DNA of 64,000 nucleotides from Stella humosa (GTDB taxonomy: Bacteria > Pseudomonadota > Alphaproteobacteria > ATCC43930 > Allostellaceae): assembly GCF_006738645.1 (NCBI RefSeq), contig NZ_AP019700.1, positions 4,570,001-4,634,000 of the forward strand, given 5' to 3'. The position numbers and the translations under genes are program-made. Below the pieces are notes generated by a model. It searched no databases. It was not told where the DNA came from and worked only from the letters and a program-made list of their open reading frames with translations. Below, one piece after another: positions 38,242-53,414 of the stretch (within the stretch, counting starts at the first letter, position 1; every line of letters starts with the position of its first letter).

Positions 38242-39693
38242 CTATGGCGTCTTCGGTGCCTCGTCGGCGGGTGCCGGTTCCGGCTCGGGCGGCGCGTCCA
38301 AAGCCTGGTCGAGGGCGGCGCGGACCCGGCGAAGGACCGGCGCCCAGTCGCCCGGCTTGCGCTGGCGGAAGAGCCAGGCCGACGGATACCAGGGGCAGTC
38401 GTCGCGCCCCAGCATCCAGCACCATTCGGGCGCGTGCGGCAGGACGATCCAGACCGGATGGCCCATGGCACCGGCCAAGTGTACGGCCGGGCCGTCGACC
38501 CCCACCACCAGGTCCATGGCGGCGATGGCGGCGGCAAATATGGCCGGGTCCTCGATCCCCTCGATCTCCTGCACCAGGGCGCCGGCGCCGGCCTGGCGGA
38601 TGTCGCGGGCAGCCCCCGCCTGGAGAGATACCAGGTCGACGTCGGGGCGTTCTGCCAGGCGCAGGAAGTGGGTCAGCGGGCAGCTCGGCGCGCGCGCGTC
38701 GCCATCGGTCGATCCGGTCGACCACATGATGCCGATGCGCAGCCGGCCGGGCACGGGCGGCGCCATCTCGCGCCGCGGCGTGCGCGGCACCCGCAAATAG
38801 GGAACGGGGGCCGGCAGCGTGTCGAGCGTGATGCCGAGGATGCGCGGCAGGTCGGGCAGGGGCGCTTCGGCCGCGACATTGGCATAGCGTCCGCCGCGGC
38901 GGACGACGCGGGCCGCGCCCTCGATCGTCTCCAGCAGCGGGATGGCGTCGTCGGGCCCCTCCAGGATCAGGGGAACGCCACGGGCGGCCGCCAGGGGGAC
39001 GAAGCGCGCGAAGAGGGCCGTCTCGGCCAGGTCGTCGCCCGCGCGCACCAGCAGGTGGCGGCCGTCGAGCGCCGATCCGTCCCAGCGCGGCCAGGTCTTG
39101 CCCCGCACCGGCACGATGGGCGACGGGTAGCGCAGCGCCAGGTCGGCGAAGCCGTCCGTGAAGTTGCCGCCCAGGAGGTGGGCCAGGCCCCGCTCGATGC
39201 GCACCTGGTGGCGCTCCGGACGCAGCGTCAGCGACCGGCCGAACGACTGGATCGCCTCGTCCAGGCGGCCGGCGTCGCGCAGCACCAGGGCCAGGTTGTA
39301 GGCGATCTCGGGCGAGCCCGGCTCGCCGGCCGCGGCTTGGCGCAGCAGGCTGACGGCGTCCTCCGTCTCACCCAGCGAGCGGAGCGCGTTGCCCAGGTTG
39401 GACAGGGTCGCGGCATGGCCCGGCCGCAGGCGGAGCGCGCGCCGGAAGCACGCGACCGAGGCCGCCGTGCGGCCCGACGCCCGCAGCGCCACGCCCAGAT
39501 TGTGATAGGCCTCGACCAGGTCCGGCCGCTCGGCGATCGCCCGGCCATAGGCGTCGATCGCCTCCTCGGCATGGCCGGCGCGCTGCAGGTCGATGCCCGC
39601 CGCCAGCAGGATCTGCGCCTTCGTGCCCGGATCGACCGTGGCCGGCATCCCGGACAGGCCGGTGCCGCCCACCTGGTCGTGATCGCCCTCCAC
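38242..39693 (-). CDS. TPR protein with GT9-like domain
   Basis: The 483-residue protein has N-terminal TPRs (DLVEAYHNLGVALRASGRTA and similar, about residues 20-160). The C-terminal domain includes LLVRAGDDLAETALFARFVP and the GT9-like ending VVGVDGPAVHLAGAMGHPVW, then the PEWCWMLGRDDCPWYPS segment. Family proteins of this type occur near surface polysaccharide or flagellar loci. GTG 39693 is chosen because GGGGAG lies 9 bases upstream; the open frame before it overlaps asd. It follows asd by 20 bases on the same strand. Confidence 0.82.
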   Translation of the reverse strand: MEGDHDQVGGTGLSGMPATVDPGTKAQILLAAGIDLQRAGHAEEAIDAYGRAIAERPDLVEAYHNLGVALRASGRTAASVACFRRALRLRPGHAATLSNLGNALRSLGETEDAVSLLRQAAAGEPGSPEIAYNLALVLRDAGRLDEAIQSFGRSLTLRPERHQVRIERGLAHLLGGNFTDGFADLALRYPSPIVPVRGKTWPRWDGSALDGRHLLVRAGDDLAETALFARFVPLAAARGVPLILEGPDDAIPLLETIEGAARVVRRGGRYANVAAEAPLPDLPRILGITLDTLPAPVPYLRVPRTPRREMAPPVPGRLRIGIMWSTGSTDGDARAPSCPLTHFLRLAERPDVDLVSLQAGAARDIRQAGAGALVQEIEGIEDPAIFAAAIAAMDLVVGVDGPAVHLAGAMGHPVWIVLPHAPEWCWMLGRDDCPWYPSAWLFRQRKPGDWAPVLRRVRAALDQALDAPPEPEPAPADEAPKTP

Positions 39694-39713
39694 CGCCGGA
39701 GGCTCCCCGCCGG

Positions 39714-40766
<1,053 letters not shown>

Positions 40767-43115: not shown

Positions 43116-44144
43116 TCAATAGGACTGCCCAGCCTTCATGTAGCGGCGGCGGTCGCCGGTGGTCAGCTTGAGCGCGCGCGGGCCGGAGGATTCGAGCAGT
43201 TCCAGCCCGACCTCGACCCCGGCATCGCCGCGCGCCCATAGGCGGCGATAGAACTCGGGAATGTTGCGGATCGGCTGGCCGGCGACGCCGACGATGATGT
43301 CGCCCAGCTTCAGCCCGCCGCGCTCGGCCGGGCTTTCGGGCTGCACGCGGGTGACGACGACGCCGACCGGGGCCTCCTGCACGTTGATGCCGAGCCAGGG
43401 CCGGCTCGGCGTAGACATGCGGCCGAGCGCCAGCAGGTCGCCCAGGATCGGCCGCAGCAGGTCGATCGGGATCATCATGTTGCCGGGCACCGGCACGCCC
43501 GGCGCCACCTGGCCCACCAGCAGCGAGCCGATCGCCACCAGCCGCCCGTCGCTGGTGAAGAGCCCGGCGCCGGCCCAGCGCGGATGGGGCGGGGACACGA
43601 ACACCGCCTCGTCCAGCATGTATTCCCAATAGCCCGCGAACTCGCGCCGCTGCACCATCAGGGCGGCCTGGCGGCCATCGTCGCCGGCGGCCACGATGGC
43701 GACGCGCTCGCCCTCGGTGAGGCGCCCGGCGCGGCCCATCGGCGCCGGCTTCACGGTCAGCGCCTCGGTCGCGCGCAGCAGGCCGAGGCCGGTATCGGCG
43801 TCGTAGCCCACGATCTCCGCCCGCATGGTGCGGCCGCGATGGTCGGTGATCTCCACCCCCATCGCCTCCAGGATGACGTAGCCGATGGTGACGATCAGGC
43901 CGTCGGCGTCGATGACGACGCCGCTGCCCTCGCGCACCGTGCCCAGCGTGCGCGCGGTGCGGGCCTCGCCCGAGACGAAGGCGCGAACCTTGACGACCGC
44001 CTGGCGCGCGGCCTCCACCGCGTCGGCGGCAGCCGGCGGAGCCGGTGCTTGGGCCGGCGCCTGGGCTTGCAGGACGGGTGCGCCCGCCAGCGCGGTCAGC
44101 AGCGCCAGCAGGATCAGAAACGGCAGCCTGGAACGTGCAACCAT
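43116..44144 (-). CDS. Trypsin-fold (DegP-like) PDZ protein lacking the catalytic residues
   Basis: The 342-residue protein has a signal peptide (MVARSRLPFLILLALLTALA), a Pro/Ala linker, an S1C trypsin-like domain (about 45-235) and one PDZ domain (about 240-330, RPWLGINVQ and VVVTRVQPESPAERGGLKLGD). The catalytic histidine is replaced by tyrosine (Tyr89 in IVTIGYVIL). The serine loop GNSGGP is degraded to RWAGAGL around 189-195. It should therefore be a periplasmic pseudoprotease, perhaps a chaperone or adaptor. It is flanked by unrelated genes. Confidence 0.85.
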   Translation of the reverse strand: MVARSRLPFLILLALLTALAGAPVLQAQAPAQAPAPPAAADAVEAARQAVVKVRAFVSGEARTARTLGTVREGSGVVIDADGLIVTIGYVILEAMGVEITDHRGRTMRAEIVGYDADTGLGLLRATEALTVKPAPMGRAGRLTEGERVAIVAAGDDGRQAALMVQRREFAGYWEYMLDEAVFVSPPHPRWAGAGLFTSDGRLVAIGSLLVGQVAPGVPVPGNMMIPIDLLRPILGDLLALGRMSTPSRPWLGINVQEAPVGVVVTRVQPESPAERGGLKLGDIIVGVAGQPIRNIPEFYRRLWARGDAGVEVGLELLESSGPRALKLTTGDRRRYMKAGQSY

Positions 44145-44253
44145 CGGAAGCTACCCCCAGCCGGATCAGAGCGCGGCAGGCAGCATCGCCCCCCGCGTCC
44201 CCTGGACGCAAGCATGCGCCGTGCCGGGCTCGCCTGTCGACGGCCGCTCGACT

Positions 44254-45402
44254 TCAGGCAGGCTGGTCCGGCTTGCGTTCCCCGGGCGAATCGATGAGGG
44301 AGCGGGTGCGCTCGCGCACCTCGGCCGCCGCATCGTCATAGAGGAACGGCAGGAAGGCATAGCGCCGGCCGCGGGTGACCGGCAGCGCCTCGTGCAGCAT
44401 CGAGCAGGAAAACACGACGGCCCCGCCGGTCGGCGCGCGATAGGTGCGGTGGCCGAATTCCGGGAAGCGCAGGTCGCCGCCGTCATACTCCTCGGCGTTG
44501 AGGTTCATGGTGACGGCGAACTTGCGATGGCGGGTGGCCGGCGTCGTGTTGTCGCGATGGGGGGCGAAGAAGCCCTGCCGCTCGGCCTCGTAGCAGGCGA
44601 CGATGTAGCGCTCGATGCGGGTGGCGCGGAACTGGGTCGCGCGCTGGATCATCGGCACCAGCCGGCGGGTGATGCGCCCGGCCAGCATCCGGCACAGGTC
44701 CTGGTCCTCGATCGAATAGTCCGACCGACGCTTGCGCGAATGGTCGTGCACGCCGACGGACCGGCCGCCGCGCGCGGTCATGAAGCCCGAATCCTCCCCG
44801 CCATGGGCATCGTAGGCGGCGATCAGGCGGCGGCAGAGGTCGAGCTCCAGGATGCGCGGCACGATCAGCACGGGCGCGGTCCCGGACGCCCACTGCTCTC
44901 CCTCGATCGGCGGCAGCGCGCGCAGCACCTTCTCAAGCGCCGCGTTGTGCGCCTCGGGGTACTCCATGCGGATGCGGGCGACCACGCGCAGGGCGGGATC
45001 GAGGACGAGCGTGTGCAGGGTTGCGGCCGAGCCGTCGACGCCCAGATGGCGGGACAGCTTCTGGTCGAAATCCTGGAACCAGCGCATCGCCGGCGCCCGG
45101 TCCATCGCCAGCCCCGCCGCCACGTCGGCCGGGTCGGTAACGACGCCGAGGAAGATGGCATTGACCGTGTCGAAATGCGACTGCGCGGCACCGAACATGA
45201 AGTTGCGGAAGGTGCGGCCGCGGTCCGAGTCGAGGGCCCCCGGGAAGGACAGGACGACATATCGCCCAGCCACCGTGTCGACCATGTAGGACGGGTTGGT
45301 CGCGGTCGTGGCCGCAAACCACGGCAGCGGTTCACCCGGACCGAGCATCGTGCCCAGCGGAAGCGCCGCGGCGAGGCGGCCTGCATCTTCGCTCATCCCC
45401 AT
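44254..45402 (-). CDS. Redoxin-like domain fused to a 2-oxoglutarate/Fe(II) oxygenase
   Basis: The 382-residue protein has an N-terminal thioredoxin-fold, AhpC-like half (about 15-165, YVVLSFPGALDSDRGRTF) without the peroxidatic cysteine. The C-terminal half is a P4Hc-type oxygenase. Iron ligands are His282 and Asp284 (PHRDNTTP) and His337 (SMLHEALPV), with RGRRYAF supplying the 2-oxoglutarate arginine. The substrate may be a protein or small molecule. The two halves being one frame is clear, with no stop between them. Confidence 0.85.
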   Translation of the reverse strand: MGMSEDAGRLAAALPLGTMLGPGEPLPWFAATTATNPSYMVDTVAGRYVVLSFPGALDSDRGRTFRNFMFGAAQSHFDTVNAIFLGVVTDPADVAAGLAMDRAPAMRWFQDFDQKLSRHLGVDGSAATLHTLVLDPALRVVARIRMEYPEAHNAALEKVLRALPPIEGEQWASGTAPVLIVPRILELDLCRRLIAAYDAHGGEDSGFMTARGGRSVGVHDHSRKRRSDYSIEDQDLCRMLAGRITRRLVPMIQRATQFRATRIERYIVACYEAERQGFFAPHRDNTTPATRHRKFAVTMNLNAEEYDGGDLRFPEFGHRTYRAPTGGAVVFSCSMLHEALPVTRGRRYAFLPFLYDDAAAEVRERTRSLIDSPGERKPDQPA

Positions 45403-45501
45403 GGCTTACACCCGGGGCCGGCACGGTCGCAACGGGCTGCCCTGCCCGATCCCTCGCCGCCAGTGTAGGGTTCCCGGCCCACCAATGCCGGAGCCCCCCG
45501 C

Positions 45502-46021: not shown

Positions 46022-48085
46022 CTATTCGACGCGCACCGTGGCGGTCGCGCCGCGACCGTCCGCGTCGAGCACGGTCAGCCGCGCGAAGCCGCGGCCGTCC
46101 GGCAGCCATTCGGCCGGGCGCCGCGGGCCGATGTCGCGGGCCGCCAGCGGGCGGCCGTCGACCAGCCAGCGCAAGGGGGGGCGCCCGCCTTCCACCACCA
46201 GCGGCACGCCGTTGCCGACCCGCCAGGGCAGCACCGCGCCATCGGGCGGGAACGAGATCACCGGCGGCGCGGGGCCGGCCGGTCCTACCCGGCCCGATCC
46301 GATGCTGCGGATGCCCGCCACCGCCGACGCCGGGTTGTCGGCGGTGGCGCTGGCCACCGCGCGAGGCGGCGCCATCGGCGGCGGCGGCAACAGGTCGAAT
46401 ATCTTCATCAGCACCGGGGCCGCGGTCGCCAGCCCCCAGCGGCCGGGCAGCGGGGTGCCGTCGGGCCGGCCGGTCCACACACCGACCGTGTAGCCGGCAT
46501 CCCAGCCGAAGGCCCAGGCATCGCGATAGCCGTAGGATGTGCCGGTCTTGATCGCCACCAGCCGGCCCTGGCCGATCGCCGCCGGCGCCACGCCGGGCGG
46601 CGGCGGCGCCTCCTCCAGGATGCGGGTCACGGACCAGGCGGCCTGGGCGCCGACGAAAGGCACCGGCGGCAACCGCTCGCCCGGGCGGACATAGGGCGGC
46701 ACGTAGCTGCCGTCCCCGGCCAGCGCGGCATAGAGCCCGGCCAGTTCGGTCAGCGTTACGCCGACCCCACCCAGCGCCAGGGGCAGCGACGGCACCGCGT
46801 GGGGGTCGCGCGTGCGCAGCCGCACGCCCAGCCCGGCCAGCCGGCCGGCGAAGCGTTCCGCCCCCAGCCGGTCGAGCACGGCCACGGCCGGCACGTTCAG
46901 CGAAAGCTGGAGCGCCTCGCGCGCGCTCACCCGGCCGCGGAAGCCATGGTCGAAGTTGCTGGGCGCATAGCCGCCGAAATTGGTCGGCCGGTCGTCGATC
47001 AGCGTCTCCGGCGTCAGCTTCAGCTCGTCGAACGCCAGGGCATAGATGAAGGGCTTCAGGGTGGAGCCGGGCGAGCGCACGCGCCGGGTCATGTCGACCG
47101 CGCCGTCGCGGGCGGGCGCGAAGAGGTCGGGCGAGCCGACATGGGCGACCACCGCGCGGGTGCGGTTGTCGACGACGATGGCCGCCATCGACTGGCTGGC
47201 ATCGAACCGGGCCGCCTCGCGCACCGCCAGCGCCTCGACCTCCCGCTGCAATCGGAGGTCGATCGTGGTGTCGATGACGCGCGGTGCCGCCGCCTCGCCG
47301 GCCAGTGCCACCGCCAGGTGCGGGGCGGCAAACGGCATGGCGAAGCGGCGGTCGGGCACCGGCTCCTCCAGCGCCTCGGCAGCGGCCGCCGCATCGAGCA
47401 CGCCGCGCTCCACCATGCGCGCCAGCACCTTGTCGCGGGCGGCGCGCGCGGCCTCCGGGAAGCGGTCGGGGCGGAGCCGCGTCGGCGATTGCGGCAGGGC
47501 CACCAGCAATGCCGCCTCGGCCGGGCGAAGCGCCGTCGGCTCCTTGCCGAGATAGATGCGGGCGGCCGCCCGCACCCCTTCGACATTGCCGCCATAGGGC
47601 GCCAGCGTCAGGTAGAGACCAAGGATGCCGTCCTTGTCGAGCCGACGCTCCAGTTGCAGCGCGCGCAGGGCCTCGGCCGCCTTGGCCCGCAGCGTGCGCG
47701 GCCGCGGCTCCAGCAGGCGGGCCGCCTGCATCGTCAGGGTGGAGGCGCCGGACACCACCTCGCCCGCCGCCACCCACTGCCAGGCGGCACGGACCACCGC
47801 CAGCGGGTCGACGCCGGGATGGCCGCGGAAGCGCTGGTCCTCATAGGCCAGCAGCATCTCGAGGAAGAGCGGATCGACGTCGGTCGGCATCGCCGGCAGC
47901 CGCCAGCTACCATCCGGCGTGGTGAAGGCGCGCAGCATCTCGCCGTCGCGCGCCAGCACCATGCGGGATACCTGGCGCTCGCGGTCGAGCGGCGGCGGCA
48001 GCAACCGGTCGGCCGCCACCAGCCCCGCCAGGCCTGCGGCCAGCGCCACCGCGGCGCCGGCCAGCCGGCGCCACCGCCGGCCCAT
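46022..48085 (-). CDS. pbpC: Penicillin-binding protein 1C
   Basis: The 687-residue protein has an N-terminal membrane anchor and a glycosyltransferase domain (AYEDQRFRGHPGVDPLA, GASTLTMQAARLLEPR). The transpeptidase domain has SPGSTLKP with the active serine, SLNVPAVA and KTGTSYG. A C-terminal PBP1C-type beta domain ends near ATVRVE. The last residues match the BiPBP_C module. It lies just downstream of the alpha-2-macroglobulin gene, the same pairing as E. coli pbpC-yfhM, suggesting a defence and repair team in the periplasm. Confidence 0.95.
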   Translation of the reverse strand: MGRRWRRLAGAAVALAAGLAGLVAADRLLPPPLDRERQVSRMVLARDGEMLRAFTTPDGSWRLPAMPTDVDPLFLEMLLAYEDQRFRGHPGVDPLAVVRAAWQWVAAGEVVSGASTLTMQAARLLEPRPRTLRAKAAEALRALQLERRLDKDGILGLYLTLAPYGGNVEGVRAAARIYLGKEPTALRPAEAALLVALPQSPTRLRPDRFPEAARAARDKVLARMVERGVLDAAAAAEALEEPVPDRRFAMPFAAPHLAVALAGEAAAPRVIDTTIDLRLQREVEALAVREAARFDASQSMAAIVVDNRTRAVVAHVGSPDLFAPARDGAVDMTRRVRSPGSTLKPFIYALAFDELKLTPETLIDDRPTNFGGYAPSNFDHGFRGRVSAREALQLSLNVPAVAVLDRLGAERFAGRLAGLGVRLRTRDPHAVPSLPLALGGVGVTLTELAGLYAALAGDGSYVPPYVRPGERLPPVPFVGAQAAWSVTRILEEAPPPPGVAPAAIGQGRLVAIKTGTSYGYRDAWAFGWDAGYTVGVWTGRPDGTPLPGRWGLATAAPVLMKIFDLLPPPPMAPPRAVASATADNPASAVAGIRSIGSGRVGPAGPAPPVISFPPDGAVLPWRVGNGVPLVVEGGRPPLRWLVDGRPLAARDIGPRRPAEWLPDGRGFARLTVLDADGRGATATVRVE

Positions 48086-48109: not shown

Positions 48110-51100
48110 CTAGCGGCGGGCGATCACCGCCGTGCCGGCCGCCGTCCGCGCCAGCCGTTCCGGCCGGTACATGTCCTCGATATAGCTGCCGGGGACGACG
48201 TAGCGGCCGGGTGTCACCGCCCGCATCAGGTAGGCCTGGGTGAAGGCGGCATCGCCCTTGGTCAGCTTCAAGCCGGCGACGAAGCGATCGTCGCGCAGCT
48301 CGGTGTGGCTGGCCTCGGTCAGTTCGGGCAACCAGGCGAAGTCCTTGGCCCCGCGCCCGCCGGCCAGGCGCGCATTCTCCAGCTCGAAGCCGGCCGGGAT
48401 CAGGTCGACCAGCAGGGCGTCGGCCCCTTCCGCCTCGGTCTCGGCCCATTCGCCGGTGACGACGACGACGATCAGGTCGTTCTGCCGCACCTTCGCCAGG
48501 TCGGCCGGCTTGCCGTCGGCCAGGTGGAACTTGCGCTCCAGGACGAAGCCGTGATTCTCGGCCGGGCGTGGGTCGCGCGGCACGCCGCTGACCGAGATCG
48601 AGCGCCACACCGGGTCCTCGCCGCGGTTGGCGACCGTCATGCGGTCGGCCGCCGCCTCGATCCGCGGCCGCAGGCTCAGCGTCCGGTTGCTGACGCGCGC
48701 CGGCCCGTCATCGACGGCCACCGTCATCGGCCCGCCCGAGCGGGCCAGCGCATGGGCCGCCAACAGCAGCCACGACTTCTCCTGCGTCGAGGTGTAGCGC
48801 CGGCGCGAGAAGCGCTGGGCGATGTCCTCGGCAAAGGCCGCCGCCCGCTGGATCGGCACGCCCGCTTCTGCGGCAAGCGCCAGGACGCCGGCCCGGTCGC
48901 GCAGCTCGCTGCCATAGTTCTGGTTGCTGACGAGCGCCACCGGCGAGGGGGCCGCGGTAGCGGCCGCAAAGGCAGCCGCCGCCCGCGGCCCGTCGCCATA
49001 GAGGGCGAGTGCGGCCCCGACCTGGGCCATGGCAAGTGCTGTCGGCAGCCGCTGGAGCTGGACGTCGTGGAAGTAGCGCACGCCGCCCAGGTCGCCGGCC
49101 CGCGCGCGGGCCAGGGCATAATAGGCATAGGCGTGGGTCGCCAGGTCGGCCGGCCCGGACGGCGACCGGCGGACGACAGCCGCCAGGTAGTCGACCGCGT
49201 TCTTCAGCGCCGGGTCCGGCACCAGGTGGCCCTGGTCGCGGGCGCGGGCGAAGAAGTCGACGACATAGGCGGTCAGCCACGGATCGGCCTCGCTGAAGGC
49301 GCCCCACAGGCCGAAGGCGCCGTCCGACTGCTGCATGTCGGCCAGCCGGCGCAGCGCGGTGTCGATCCGTTCCTTGGCATCGACCCGCTTGCCGGGCAGC
49401 TGCCACTCGCGGGCGACGTCGGCCAGGTAGAGCAGCGGCATGGCGACGCTGGTCGTCTGCTCGACGCAGCCATAGGGGTAGCGGTCGAGTTCGCGGATCA
49501 GGCCGGCCACGTCCCAGCTCGGCCGCGGGCTGAGGTTGAGGAAGACCTCGGCCGTGCCGGGCAGCAGGTCGGCCACCAAGTCGACGCCCAGCGCCAGGCT
49601 CTGGCCAGGCTCGATCCGGCCGACGATGCGCCGGGCCTCGTAGGGTTGCGACGGCCGCACCGACAGGTCCCAGGCGCGCTCGACCGCGAAGCCCTGCGGC
49701 CCCGACAGCGCCATCAGCACCCGCCCGTCGCCGATACGGGTGCCGGATAGCGGATAGCTCTGCTCGAACCGCTTGCCGGGAGCCAGCGCCACCTTGATCT
49801 CGGCCGGCGCCTCGATGCCGACCGCCCCCTCGCCCGCCAGGCGCAGGACGTACTCGCCCGCCTCGCCATCGACATTGTCGAGCGAGACGGTGACCTGGGC
49901 CGCGTCGCCGGGGGCGAGGAATCGCGGGGTCGCGACCAGGCTGGCGACCGGGTCGCGCACCGTCATCGCCCCTTCGCCGGCGCCCACCGCGGTCGCACTC
50001 CAGGCGACCGCCATCAGGCGCAGCCGGCCCTGGAAATCGGGCACGTCCAGCGCGACGGTGGCCTTGCCCTCGGCATCGAGGTCGACGATGCCCGAGAAGA
50101 GGGCGGTGATGCGGATGTTCTTCTTGGGCAAGCCGCCCAGGTTGCGCTCGGCGCTGTCGTCGCCGCCCGAGCGCAGGCGGCCGACCTCGCCCGTCCGACC
50201 GTCGAGCAGGCGGCCATAGAGGTCGCGCATATCGACGCCCAGGCGCCGCCGGCCGAAGAAGTGGCGGTCGGGCGCCGGGGTGGCGAAGTCGGTCAGGCGC
50301 AGCACGCCCTCGTCGACGGCGGCCAGGGTCACGTGCGCCTTGGCCTCGCGCGTGCCGCCGACCCGCAATTGCACCGTGGCCGGCCCGCGCGGGCGCACGA
50401 CTTCGGGCGCCTCGATCTGCACGGTGAGCGCGCTCTCGCTGCGCTCGATCGGCATCCAGGCGACACCGACGGCCCGGCCCGGCCCCATGGCGTCGGCCGC
50501 CCCGGCCGGGCGCAGGCCCGTCGCCAGGACATAGACGCCGGCCCCCCAGGATTCGTCGACCGGCAGGTCGATCGTGTTGCCGACGCCCGGCAGGTGCACG
50601 GCGCGGACCTGATGGACGCGGTTGGAGACGACCGACACGATCGCCTCGCCCGCGAAGGGCCCCTTCAGGAAGAGCCGCGCCGTGTCGCCCGGCCGGTAGC
50701 GCGGCTTGTCGAGCGTCACTTCCAGCCGGTCGGGCACCTCGGGCGATTCGGCGCCGACCCACCAGCCGACGCGGAAGCGCAGGCTGGTCTGGGCGCCCGT
50801 CTTCTCGTCCATGACGTCCAGGCGCCAGCGGCCGGCCCCGAGGTTGCGCTCGAAGGTGGCGGGCATGGTCGCGGCGACGGCCAGCGTGCCGGTCTCCTGC
50901 CGGCGGTCCTGGATGACGGCGCGATACTTCCAGTCGCCATACTGGTTGTACCACTGCCAGTTCCACTGCTCGCTCACGAGCTCGAACTTCAGGCCGGGGG
51001 CGGCGACCGGCCGGCCCTGGCGGTCGACGGCGATGATGTCGAAGGCGGCCGGCTGGCCCTCGGCCACGGCCGTTTCGCCGGCGCGCGCGCGGATGCCGAT

Positions 51101-53365
51101 GTCGAAGGTCCGCGCGGCGATCGGCAGGGTCAGCCGGCGGGTGACCGGGCGGCCACCCGGCTCGAACATCGAGCCACGGATGACGAGGTCGAGGGGCCGG
51201 GTCGTCTCGGGCAGGGTCTCCAGCTTCACCTCGAAGCGGGTCTTGCCCTGGGCGTCGGCGGCGGCGGCCTCGATCTCGATCCGCTGCGGCTCGACCTCGC
51301 CCTCGACGGGGCCGAAGCGGAAGCCCTTGTGCATCGGATAGGGGTCGGCCGCGGCCGTCACGACCACCTCGGCCTCCGCGCCGGCACCCACGGCGGGCGC
51401 CCCGTAGAAGAAGTTGCCGGTCATGGTCACCGGCAGGGGCACGCCCGGCTTGGCCTGGTCGCCGGCCGCCTCGATCGCGACCTCGATGGTGGGCGGGGCG
51501 ATGTCCTCGACCGAGAACTCCATCTGGCCGACCGCCTTGCCCTTGGGGTCGACGAAGACCTGTACCGACCACTTGCCGGTGCGCGCGCGATCGGCGATCG
51601 GCACGGCCAAGTAGTAGCCGCCGGTGGCGGTCGACTGCAGCGTCGTCTTCACCACCTCGACGCCGTCCGGCCGCGCCACCCGGAAGGTGAGCGGCAGCCC
51701 GGTCTCGGCAATGCCGCGATCGTTGCGCAGAAGCGCCATCAGGTGCGCGGTCTCGCCCGGGCGATAGACGCCGCGGTCGCCATAGAGAAAGGCATCGAGC
51801 GGGCCCGGCACCGGCCGGCCCGACACGCCGCGGTCCGACAGGTCGAAAGCCGGGCGGACGAGGCTGAGGAAATTGAAGTCCCCGTCCCTGCCATAGAGCA
51901 TGACCACGGCCGGGCTGTCGCCACCACGACCGCGCAATGCGGGGGCGGGGAAGCGCGCGATGCCCTGGTCGTCGGTCGCCACGCGGCCCAGCTCGGAATT
52001 GTTGCGCGCGAAGAGGCGCGTCTCAACGCCCGCCGCCGGCAGGGCCGAGCCCAGATGGCGGGCCACCACCGTCAGCCCGTCCTCGCCCGTCAGGCTGGTG
52101 ATGCCGATGTCGGAGACGAGCACCCACTGGGCGGCCTTCTCGACATAGTCGCCGCGCTGCGCCTCGACCGGGTCGGCCACCATCAGGTAGAGGCCGGGCT
52201 TGCGCTCGCGCACGATCTCGCCGATCGGCACCAGGGCGTTGCGCGGCCGGTTGCGCTCGGCCGCCGGCAGGTCCATCTCGCCCGACCAGACGCGGCTGCC
52301 GGTCTGCTCGGCGATCTCGTCAACCTCCGACTGGCTCAGCGAATTGGAGAAGCCGTCGCGCGCCACCTGCTCGACCAGCGCGCGGTCGTTGATGCGCAGG
52401 AGCTGGAGGCGGACGCGGGCCGAGTTGACCGCCGTCAGCGGCACGCCGCGGCTGCCTTCCTGGGGCAGGACATAGGCCGGCCCGCGGAAGGCGACCGACG
52501 GCTCGCGGTCGCGCACGATCGCGCGCACCTGCTGGCTCTCCTCCAGCCGGTCGCCGGTCTCGGCCGGCAGGCCCTGGCGGACGGTCAGCACATAGACCTG
52601 CCCATGGGCGACGCCGTCGACGCACAGATTGTTGCCGCGGCCGGACACGTCGCCGCGGATCGCGGGCTCGGTCCGCACATAGTCATTGAAGGCGAAGCCC
52701 TTGGCCTTGGTCAGCTCGTAGTTGAAGCGCACGCAGATCCGCGGCTGCTCGCTCTCGGCCGCGACGTTCACGCCGACGACACGGAAGGCGACGATCCGCT
52801 TCAACTCGTCGCGCCGCTTTACCGCCGCCTCGACGGGGGCCAGCGCAATGGCGGCGTCGAAGACGGCCAGCGCGTCGCGCTGGCGCGTGGCCCGGTCGAA
52901 CTGGCGGGCGACGATATAGAGTGCGTTGGCGCGGTCGACCGGGGTGCGCGCCTTGCCCAGCGCGACATGGGCGGCGGCCGAGGCGCGGTCGTTGCGCGTC
53001 TGCTCCAGCGCGCGCGCCAGTTCGACCCAGGTGCGATGGTCGTCGAGGCCGCGGACGATTGCGGTCTCGTACTCGGCCACCGCCTGGGCCCAGCGCTTGG
53101 CCTTGGCATGCTCGTCGCCGCGCTGGCGGGCGGCCAGGGCGGCAGCATTGTCGGGCTTGCCGGCGCCGGTGCGGGCCTGCAGCACCTTCACGTAGCGGTC
53201 GGCCGCCTGCACCAGATCTGGCGACTCGACGACGGGCGGCAGGGCCGCGACCGGGGCCGGTGCTGGCGCCGAAACCGCCTGTGCTGCGGCCGGAGTGGCG
53301 AAGCCCAGCGAAACGGACAGCGTCAGTAGCGCGAGGATGGCGAAAAGGCGCTTCGTACCGACCAT
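48110..53365 (-). CDS. Alpha-2-macroglobulin family lipoprotein-like protein
   Basis: The 1751-residue protein starts with a signal peptide (MVGTKRLFAILALLTLSVSL, ending ATPAAAQA; no lipobox cysteine). It has macroglobulin domains, a bait region, and a thioester domain with GCVEQT at Cys1300. Bacterial A2Ms trap proteases via this thioester. TPR-like helices (about 40-170) precede the MG domains. Two earlier in-frame ATGs (53380, 53383) are possible, but GGGAG lies 8 bases before ATG 53365. pbpC follows 24 bases later. Confidence 0.93.
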   Translation of the reverse strand: MVGTKRLFAILALLTLSVSLGFATPAAAQAVSAPAPAPVAALPPVVESPDLVQAADRYVKVLQARTGAGKPDNAAALAARQRGDEHAKAKRWAQAVAEYETAIVRGLDDHRTWVELARALEQTRNDRASAAAHVALGKARTPVDRANALYIVARQFDRATRQRDALAVFDAAIALAPVEAAVKRRDELKRIVAFRVVGVNVAAESEQPRICVRFNYELTKAKGFAFNDYVRTEPAIRGDVSGRGNNLCVDGVAHGQVYVLTVRQGLPAETGDRLEESQQVRAIVRDREPSVAFRGPAYVLPQEGSRGVPLTAVNSARVRLQLLRINDRALVEQVARDGFSNSLSQSEVDEIAEQTGSRVWSGEMDLPAAERNRPRNALVPIGEIVRERKPGLYLMVADPVEAQRGDYVEKAAQWVLVSDIGITSLTGEDGLTVVARHLGSALPAAGVETRLFARNNSELGRVATDDQGIARFPAPALRGRGGDSPAVVMLYGRDGDFNFLSLVRPAFDLSDRGVSGRPVPGPLDAFLYGDRGVYRPGETAHLMALLRNDRGIAETGLPLTFRVARPDGVEVVKTTLQSTATGGYYLAVPIADRARTGKWSVQVFVDPKGKAVGQMEFSVEDIAPPTIEVAIEAAGDQAKPGVPLPVTMTGNFFYGAPAVGAGAEAEVVVTAAADPYPMHKGFRFGPVEGEVEPQRIEIEAAAADAQGKTRFEVKLETLPETTRPLDLVIRGSMFEPGGRPVTRRLTLPIAARTFDIGIRARAGETAVAEGQPAAFDIIAVDRQGRPVAAPGLKFELVSEQWNWQWYNQYGDWKYRAVIQDRRQETGTLAVAATMPATFERNLGAGRWRLDVMDEKTGAQTSLRFRVGWWVGAESPEVPDRLEVTLDKPRYRPGDTARLFLKGPFAGEAIVSVVSNRVHQVRAVHLPGVGNTIDLPVDESWGAGVYVLATGLRPAGAADAMGPGRAVGVAWMPIERSESALTVQIEAPEVVRPRGPATVQLRVGGTREAKAHVTLAAVDEGVLRLTDFATPAPDRHFFGRRRLGVDMRDLYGRLLDGRTGEVGRLRSGGDDSAERNLGGLPKKNIRITALFSGIVDLDAEGKATVALDVPDFQGRLRLMAVAWSATAVGAGEGAMTVRDPVASLVATPRFLAPGDAAQVTVSLDNVDGEAGEYVLRLAGEGAVGIEAPAEIKVALAPGKRFEQSYPLSGTRIGDGRVLMALSGPQGFAVERAWDLSVRPSQPYEARRIVGRIEPGQSLALGVDLVADLLPGTAEVFLNLSPRPSWDVAGLIRELDRYPYGCVEQTTSVAMPLLYLADVAREWQLPGKRVDAKERIDTALRRLADMQQSDGAFGLWGAFSEADPWLTAYVVDFFARARDQGHLVPDPALKNAVDYLAAVVRRSPSGPADLATHAYAYYALARARAGDLGGVRYFHDVQLQRLPTALAMAQVGAALALYGDGPRAAAAFAAATAAPSPVALVSNQNYGSELRDRAGVLALAAEAGVPIQRAAAFAEDIAQRFSRRRYTSTQEKSWLLLAAHALARSGGPMTVAVDDGPARVSNRTLSLRPRIEAAADRMTVANRGEDPVWRSISVSGVPRDPRPAENHGFVLERKFHLADGKPADLAKVRQNDLIVVVVTGEWAETEAEGADALLVDLIPAGFELENARLAGGRGAKDFAWLPELTEASHTELRDDRFVAGLKLTKGDAAFTQAYLMRAVTPGRYVVPGSYIEDMYRPERLARTAAGTAVIARR

Positions 53366-53414
53366 TGCGCGAACTCCCATCATCCGGCCGTGAGAACTAC
53401 AGGCTATGCGTCGG

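What the first reader, a model, noticed from the sequence alone, without database searches (positions are those of the whole stretch)
44254..45402. Fusion of a cysteine-less redoxin to a prolyl-hydroxylase-like oxygenase
The N-terminal thioredoxin fold lacks the peroxidatic Cys and is joined in one frame to a complete P4Hc domain (H282, D284, H337). The redoxin half may bind a protein substrate or sense redox rather than catalyse. I do not know of a characterised enzyme of this build.
Basis: partly seen in the sequence, partly recalled or inferred. Interest (0 to 1): 0.5.

Follow-up and report, generated by a model that had tools for sequence, protein, structure and literature searches.

The report
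Dead peroxiredoxin fused to protein hydroxylase
A bacterial enzyme that probably adds a hydroxyl group to another protein carries at its front a peroxiredoxin-shaped module that has lost its reactive cysteine; the pairing is common in related bacteria, but no study of it was found and its target is unknown.

Summary
The gene is on the minus strand (45402 to 44254, 382 aa). Residues 19-166 have a thioredoxin fold of the PrxQ/BCP peroxiredoxin type (family profile against PDB, best E 1e-13; separate model pLDDT 94.6; Bcp1 Z 17.3) with no cysteine. Residues 174-357 form a complete Fe(II)/2-oxoglutarate oxygenase (H282, D284, H337, R347) closest in fold to algal prolyl hydroxylase, bacterial EF-Tu prolyl hydroxylase and PHD2.

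The fusion is old and common: 150 of 161 distinct family catalytic domains in hand carry the redoxin in frame, and 84 of 385 genomes sampled from the class have the family. The peroxidatic site is lost family-wide: 3 of 145 have Cys there, none with the PxxxTxxC motif. The catalytic half is strongly conserved (34 of 183 columns at 90% or more); the redoxin half is not (4 of 148). Best reading: a cytosolic peptidyl hydroxylase with a redox-dead peroxiredoxin as docking or scaffold domain. Thiol redox sensing by this N-half is excluded. Strict prolyl-4-hydroxylase membership is doubtful (the P4H tyrosine is Phe). A cyanobacterial member is further fused to a glycosyltransferase. Two annotated records call it only "2OG-Fe(II) oxygenase". 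New variant of a known kind; substrate unknown.

The parts
44254..45402 (-). redoxin-P4Hc fusion gene, 382 aa
44905..45348 (-). N-terminal PrxQ/BCP-like thioredoxin-fold domain (residues 19-166), without cysteine
45217..45219 (-). position of the lost peroxidatic Cys (G62 by hand alignment to the PxxxTxxC motif)
   Evidence: Cys in 3 of 145 at this column; no PxxxTxxC at the site in 145
44884..44904 (-). interdomain linker (residues 167-173), low model confidence
   Evidence: pLDDT below 50 at 170-173
44332..44883 (-). C-terminal 2OG-Fe(II) oxygenase (P4Hc-type double-stranded beta-helix) domain (residues 174-357)
44551..44559 (-). HRD: iron ligands H282 and D284
   Evidence: 145 of 145 for H282, R283 and D284
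44392..44394 (-). third iron ligand H337
   Evidence: 144 of 145
44362..44364 (-). R347, inferred 2-oxoglutarate-binding Arg
   Evidence: 145 of 145; role inferred from position, recalled
43116..44144 (-). downstream neighbour: trypsin-like/PDZ (HtrA-type) protease, same strand, about 110 bp away; not shown to belong to the system

Best explanation
A cytosolic Fe(II)/2-oxoglutarate-dependent hydroxylase of the prolyl/lysyl (P4Hc) structural type, acting most likely on a residue of a protein, in which an ancestral PrxQ/BCP peroxiredoxin domain has lost its peroxide chemistry and serves as a fused, non-catalytic docking or scaffold domain. Iron is held by H282, D284 and H337 and 2OG by R347; O2 and 2OG are used to hydroxylate the substrate, with succinate and CO2 released. 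Shown by computation: the two folds, intact catalytic residues, absent peroxidatic site, and conservation of the fusion. Inferred: catalysis itself, a protein substrate, the docking role, and cytosolic location (no signal peptide seen by eye).
For: N-half fold. C-half: Pfam 47.2 bits against 27; Foldseek top hits are PHD2 with its HIF peptide and P. putida P4H with EF-Tu; VIA 3gze Z 18.9 (rmsd 2.4, 172 aligned) and 4iw3 Z 18.2 (3.2, 184), tied. Catalytic residues 144-145 of 145; Cp site Cys in 3 of 145; no PxxxTxxC at the site in 145; these three Cys need 3 changes on the tree, so Cp loss looks ancestral. 150 of 161 distinct family catalytic domains keep the redoxin in frame. Constraint is lopsided: 34 of 183 catalytic columns at 90% or more against 4 of 148 redoxin columns. 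Precedent for non-catalytic extra domains in protein-acting 2OG oxygenases: PMC4396695 Discussion section, read in full; PMC4543633, passages.
Against: No substrate is known and no neighbour gene recurs (most frequent family 5 of 110 neighbours), so a protein substrate rests on fold kinship alone. The P4H tyrosine is Phe. At least two members lack the redoxin altogether (L184, L188), so it is not strictly needed. The low conservation of the redoxin half gives no obvious docking site.
Confidence: 0.55

Rival explanations
1. The enzyme hydroxylates a small molecule (free amino acid, siderophore or secondary metabolite) and the redoxin domain only stabilises it or binds a carrier.
For: The closest NCBIfam and PDB relatives by sequence include the PiuC/YbiX PKHD group, whose members are tied to iron uptake in the listing; the strict P4H tyrosine is absent.
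Against: Far below the NCBIfam equivalog cut-offs (40 against 143 bits). Fold ranks PHD2, EF-Tu P4H and algal P4H with peptide first. No biosynthetic cluster recurs.
Confidence: 0.27
2. The redoxin half senses redox state or is still a weak peroxidase that regulates the oxygenase.
For: Three of 145 relatives have Cys at the peroxidatic column (L030, L105, L140); in four loci an ECF sigma/putative anti-sigma pair sits upstream, a stress-type setting.
Against: No cysteine in residues 1-189 here; no PxxxTxxC at the site in any of 145. The conserved cysteines C190 (145 of 145), C333 (125) and C270 (103) are in the oxygenase half.
Confidence: 0.07
3. The redoxin half is a relic that only keeps the polypeptide folded, with no partner.
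For: Low column conservation (4 of 148 at 90% or more); stand-alone catalytic relatives exist (L184, L188).
Against: Kept in 150 of 161 distinct family members, from loci of three phyla, and still modelled as a full, confident fold.
Confidence: 0.11

Closest known systems
Pseudomonas prolyl hydroxylase PPHD (4iw3/4j25), PHD2/EGLN1, algal P4H (3gze)
   Same: P4Hc fold, HxD...H iron site, Z about 16 to 18.9
   Different: No redoxin domain; the shared P4H tyrosine is Phe279 here; sequence identity 14-20%
PKHD-type hydroxylases PiuC/YbiX (9ghl, 9qn0, 3dkq)
   Same: Nearest by sequence and NCBIfam; same spacing of distal His to Arg (ten residues, read off the alignment)
   Different: Single-domain, about 225 aa; query far below the equivalog cut-offs
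Lysyl hydroxylase LH3 (PLOD3)
   Same: Best phmmer hit of the oxygenase half (5.4e-6); a relative (L028) is likewise a hydroxylase-glycosyltransferase fusion
   Different: No redoxin; LH3 lacks the segment carrying R293 (gap in the alignment); the GT of L028 is at the other end of the chain (order in LH3 recalled)
PrxQ/BCP peroxiredoxins (Bcp1 3drn, Bcp4 3hjp, 5epf)
   Same: Fold and sequence profile of the N-half
   Different: Peroxidatic Cys and PxxxTxxC motif absent
Collagen P4H alpha2beta2 with PDI as beta subunit (PMC9676403, passages)
   Same: A thioredoxin-fold partner attached to a P4H catalytic domain, bound at its back with the active site free
   Different: Separate subunit, four thioredoxin domains, bonded through CGHC cysteines; here one fused, Cys-free PrxQ-type domain

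Membership tests
2OG-Fe(II) oxygenase superfamily, PF13640 | profile match above gathering score; HxD...H iron site and distal Arg | tested here: met
   47.2 bits against 27; H282 and D284 145/145, H337 144/145, R347 145/145
Prolyl 4-hydroxylase (strict) | conserved Tyr (Tyr310 PHD2, Tyr140 CrP4H), three residues before the first iron His (His numbers recalled) | tested here: not met
   F279; column F 132, L 11, Q 1, K 1 of 145; feature from PMC4396695
Prolyl hydroxylases (P4H and P3H) | Arg at the active-site opening (Arg322 PHD2) | tested here: inconclusive
   R293 in 143 of 145 fits, but the mapping was made by hand against a recalled sequence
Prolyl or lysyl hydroxylase | hydroxylates a protein residue | not testable with these tools
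   needs biochemistry
PKHD-type hydroxylase (PiuC/YbiX) | NCBIfam equivalog cut-off | tested here: not met
   40.1 against 143, 36.8 against 180, 31.2 against 336, 21.4 against 399 bits
Peroxiredoxin (PrxQ/BCP) | Prx-type thioredoxin fold | tested here: met
Peroxiredoxin (PrxQ/BCP) | peroxidatic Cys in PxxxTxxC (motif recalled) | tested here: not met
   no Cys in residues 1-189; motif at the site in 0 of 145
Peroxiredoxin (PrxQ/BCP) | active-site Arg | tested here: inconclusive
   hand-placed column 129: L here, R in 15 of 145
LH3-type hydroxylase-glycosyltransferase | glycosyltransferase in the same chain | tested here: not met
   382 aa with two domains only; a GT tail is seen in L028 alone

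The most novel reading that the evidence does not exclude
A widespread, unrecognised bacterial protein-hydroxylation system in which a redox-dead peroxiredoxin became the substrate-recruiting arm of a PHD-like oxygenase, with the new hydroxyl used in some lineages as the acceptor for a sugar (the cyanobacterial redoxin-hydroxylase-GT4 chain L028). That would parallel collagen lysine and Skp1 proline hydroxylation followed by glycosylation.
Probability: 0.15. Interest if true: 0.7.

Novelty: new variant of a known kind. Interest (0 to 1): 0.42.

Why it matters
[quoted passage not shown] This family breaks that pattern, is PHD2-like in the fold of its catalytic half, and sits in 84 of 385 genomes sampled from the class under the bare name '2OG-Fe(II) oxygenase' in the two annotated records seen. 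It is a ready test of how a dead redox enzyme can be reused as a binding module, and a route to unknown bacterial protein hydroxylations.

Tried and rejected
Thiol redox sensing: rejected for the N-half (no Cys in residues 1-189).

Chance or shadow frame: rejected; the frame recurs in 145 distinct full-length sequences, the window's own included. The 527-aa plus-strand ORF over the gene (43885-45468) was taken as the shadow.

Gene neighbourhood as a guide to function: 110 of the 155 neighbour ORFs listed were scanned (the others were dropped to keep under the limits, mostly from within-genus near copies, short ORFs and L092/L097). No family recurs in more than 5 of 110. It gives only minor leads (ECF sigma pairs, HtrA-type protease).

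Literature: searched the held library (open PMC papers only). None listed a study that I could recognise, by title and abstract start, as one of a peroxiredoxin/redoxin-P4H fusion; searches returned no paper. Absence in that library is not absence in print. The EF-Tu hydroxylase paper itself (PNAS 2014) was not held.

Rows dropped: A1 leaves out L037 (frame broken) and L040 (near copy of L039) from the 29 loci. In one search, 181 frames matched, 164 were full-length by my limits and 145 distinct. In one search, of the 11 catalytic domains without a redoxin hit, two are at contig ends (L192, L186), four have a broken frame (L113, L185, L037, L072), L165 has a redoxin-like N-half too divergent to hit (by eye), two are stand-alone (L184, L110/L188), and two are on viral contigs without a redoxin hit (L120, L121). 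One search used 158 of 161 rows by a quick tree with many open forks; its Cys count covers 144 rows.

Limits: the genome search scored at most five candidates per genome in the profile searches, so its counts are lower bounds. The genome-contig scan (one allowed) used peptide patterns from one sequence and finds close relatives only.

Full report
Observation. The gene reads on the minus strand, 45402 to 44254, 382 aa. Pfam finds the oxygenase clearly (PF13640, 47.2 bits against a cut-off of 27) and the redoxin only weakly (AhpC-TSA, E 0.023).

Fold of the N-half. A profile of 28 relatives (A1) hits peroxiredoxins of the PrxQ/BCP kind at 1.1e-13 to 2.3e-11 over the N-half. AlphaFold2 gave a full-length model with pLDDT 89.8 and pTM 0.81 and an N-domain model with pLDDT 94.6 and pTM 0.90. 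The N-domain aligns with Bcp1 (3drn) at Z 17.3, rmsd 2.6 A over 142 residues, and with many other peroxiredoxins within about one Z unit. Eighteen of the 28 A1 members match AhpC-TSA by themselves at E<=0.001. So the thioredoxin fold is firmly supported, and the N-half most likely descends from a peroxiredoxin.

Loss of the peroxidatic site. Among 145 distinct full-length family sequences the column of the peroxidatic Cys (query G62, placed by hand) holds Cys in three (L030, L105, L140). None has PxxxTxxC there: two matches to the pattern (L036, L038) lie elsewhere. On a tree of 158 catalytic domains those three need three separate changes, which fits a Cys-less ancestor. Thirty-six of 145 have no Cys at all in the N-half.

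Catalytic half. H282, R283, D284, Y271 and R347 are in 145 of 145 and H337 in 144. Foldseek ranks PHD2 with a HIF peptide and P. putida prolyl hydroxylase with EF-Tu first. VIA-align gives algal P4H with peptide Z 18.9 and 4iw3 Z 18.2, tied. By sequence the nearest are LH3 (5.4e-6) and PiuC (1e-5). According to PMC4396695 (Discussion section read in full) all P4Hs share a tyrosine (Tyr310 in PHD2), Leu in prolyl 3-hydroxylases, and all P4Hs and P3Hs share an Arg (Arg322). Here the Tyr position is Phe in 132 and Leu in 11 of 145, while an Arg fits the Arg322 place in 143 of 145; the mapping of both is by hand, the latter against a recalled sequence. The protein is therefore hydroxylase-like, but strict P4H membership fails one tested feature.

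The fusion in relatives. The genome-contig scan brought 29 loci from Alpha- and Gammaproteobacteria, a cyanobacterium, a Pirellulaceae and a Phycisphaerae bacterium. A class sample has the family in 84 of 385 genomes at E<=1e-20, a phylum sample in 19 of 398, all listed positives being of the same class. Of 161 distinct family catalytic domains in hand, 150 have the redoxin in the same frame. Two are stand-alone (L184; L188, seen as L110), so the redoxin can be lost. Tandem copies occur in G653 and G375, the latter with one copy interrupted by a stop. The annotated plasmid records in R. leguminosarum WSM1325 (WP_012760540.1) and Niveispirillum cyanobacteriorum (WP_102115373.1) are named only '2OG-Fe(II) oxygenase'.

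Constraint. At 90% or more identity there are 34 conserved columns of 183 in the catalytic half and 4 of 148 in the redoxin half. This fits a working enzyme with a faster-changing adaptor or scaffold.

Context. No neighbour family recurs widely. Four loci carry a sigma-70-type ECF gene followed by a putative anti-sigma gene upstream (L026, L035, L043, with Pfam for the sigma genes of L026 and L035; L183 as annotated, where an OpgC gene lies between); the putative anti-sigma ORFs tested in L026 and L035 had no Pfam match. In L035 and L043 the gap to the oxygenase gene is 5 bp. In the cyanobacterium L028 the same reading frame continues through an acidic linker into a GT4 glycosyltransferase (PF12000 2.1e-71, PF00534 1.7e-20). 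It was the only full-length family frame with such a tail among those listed.

Mechanism. Most likely a cytosolic hydroxylase that acts on a protein, with the redoxin as docking or scaffold domain. Precedents are the non-catalytic domain of OGFOD1 and the TPR domains of other protein hydroxylases, and, more loosely, PDI on collagen P4H, where the catalytic domain's active site points away from the thioredoxin-fold subunit (PMC9676403 passages). Catalysis, substrate and docking are inferred. The main rival is a small-molecule substrate, in line with the PiuC kinship.

Verdict. It is built from two well-known folds, so it is a new variant of a known kind.

Noticed in passing
L028:4760-7435: Cyanobacterial family member continues into a GT4-type glycosyltransferase through an acidic linker: redoxin-hydroxylase-glycosyltransferase in one chain.
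   Followed up: partly
L026:4402-5716, L035:4612-5965, L043:4642-5962, L183:3390-4728: ECF sigma factor and putative anti-sigma gene upstream of the family gene in two Niveispirillum and two Thalassobaculum-type loci; 5-bp gap to the oxygenase gene in L035 and L043.
   Followed up: partly
L182:7520-10102: In R. leguminosarum a DoxX / DNA-binding-domain / DUF692 / DUF2282 gene set (resembling bufferin-type peptide clusters, recalled) lies next to the family gene on the opposite strand.
   Followed up: no
window 46022-48085 (-) and 48110-53383 (-): Penicillin-binding protein 1C-like gene next to a bacterial alpha-2-macroglobulin gene (Pfam), an ordinary pairing (recalled).
   Followed up: yes
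window 43885-45468 (+): A 527-aa ORF runs antisense over the whole gene; taken as a GC-rich shadow frame.
   Followed up: no
L140 and L030: Rare family members with Cys at the peroxidatic column (L140 reads DPGC, L030 NGQC); possible regained redox function.
   Followed up: partly
L190 and L191: Tandem copies of the fusion gene in two genomes; in L191 one copy is interrupted by a stop.
   Followed up: partly
window 38242-40128 (-): TPR protein with an unassigned C-terminal half (Pfam shows TPRs only) about 4 kb from the gene.
   Followed up: no
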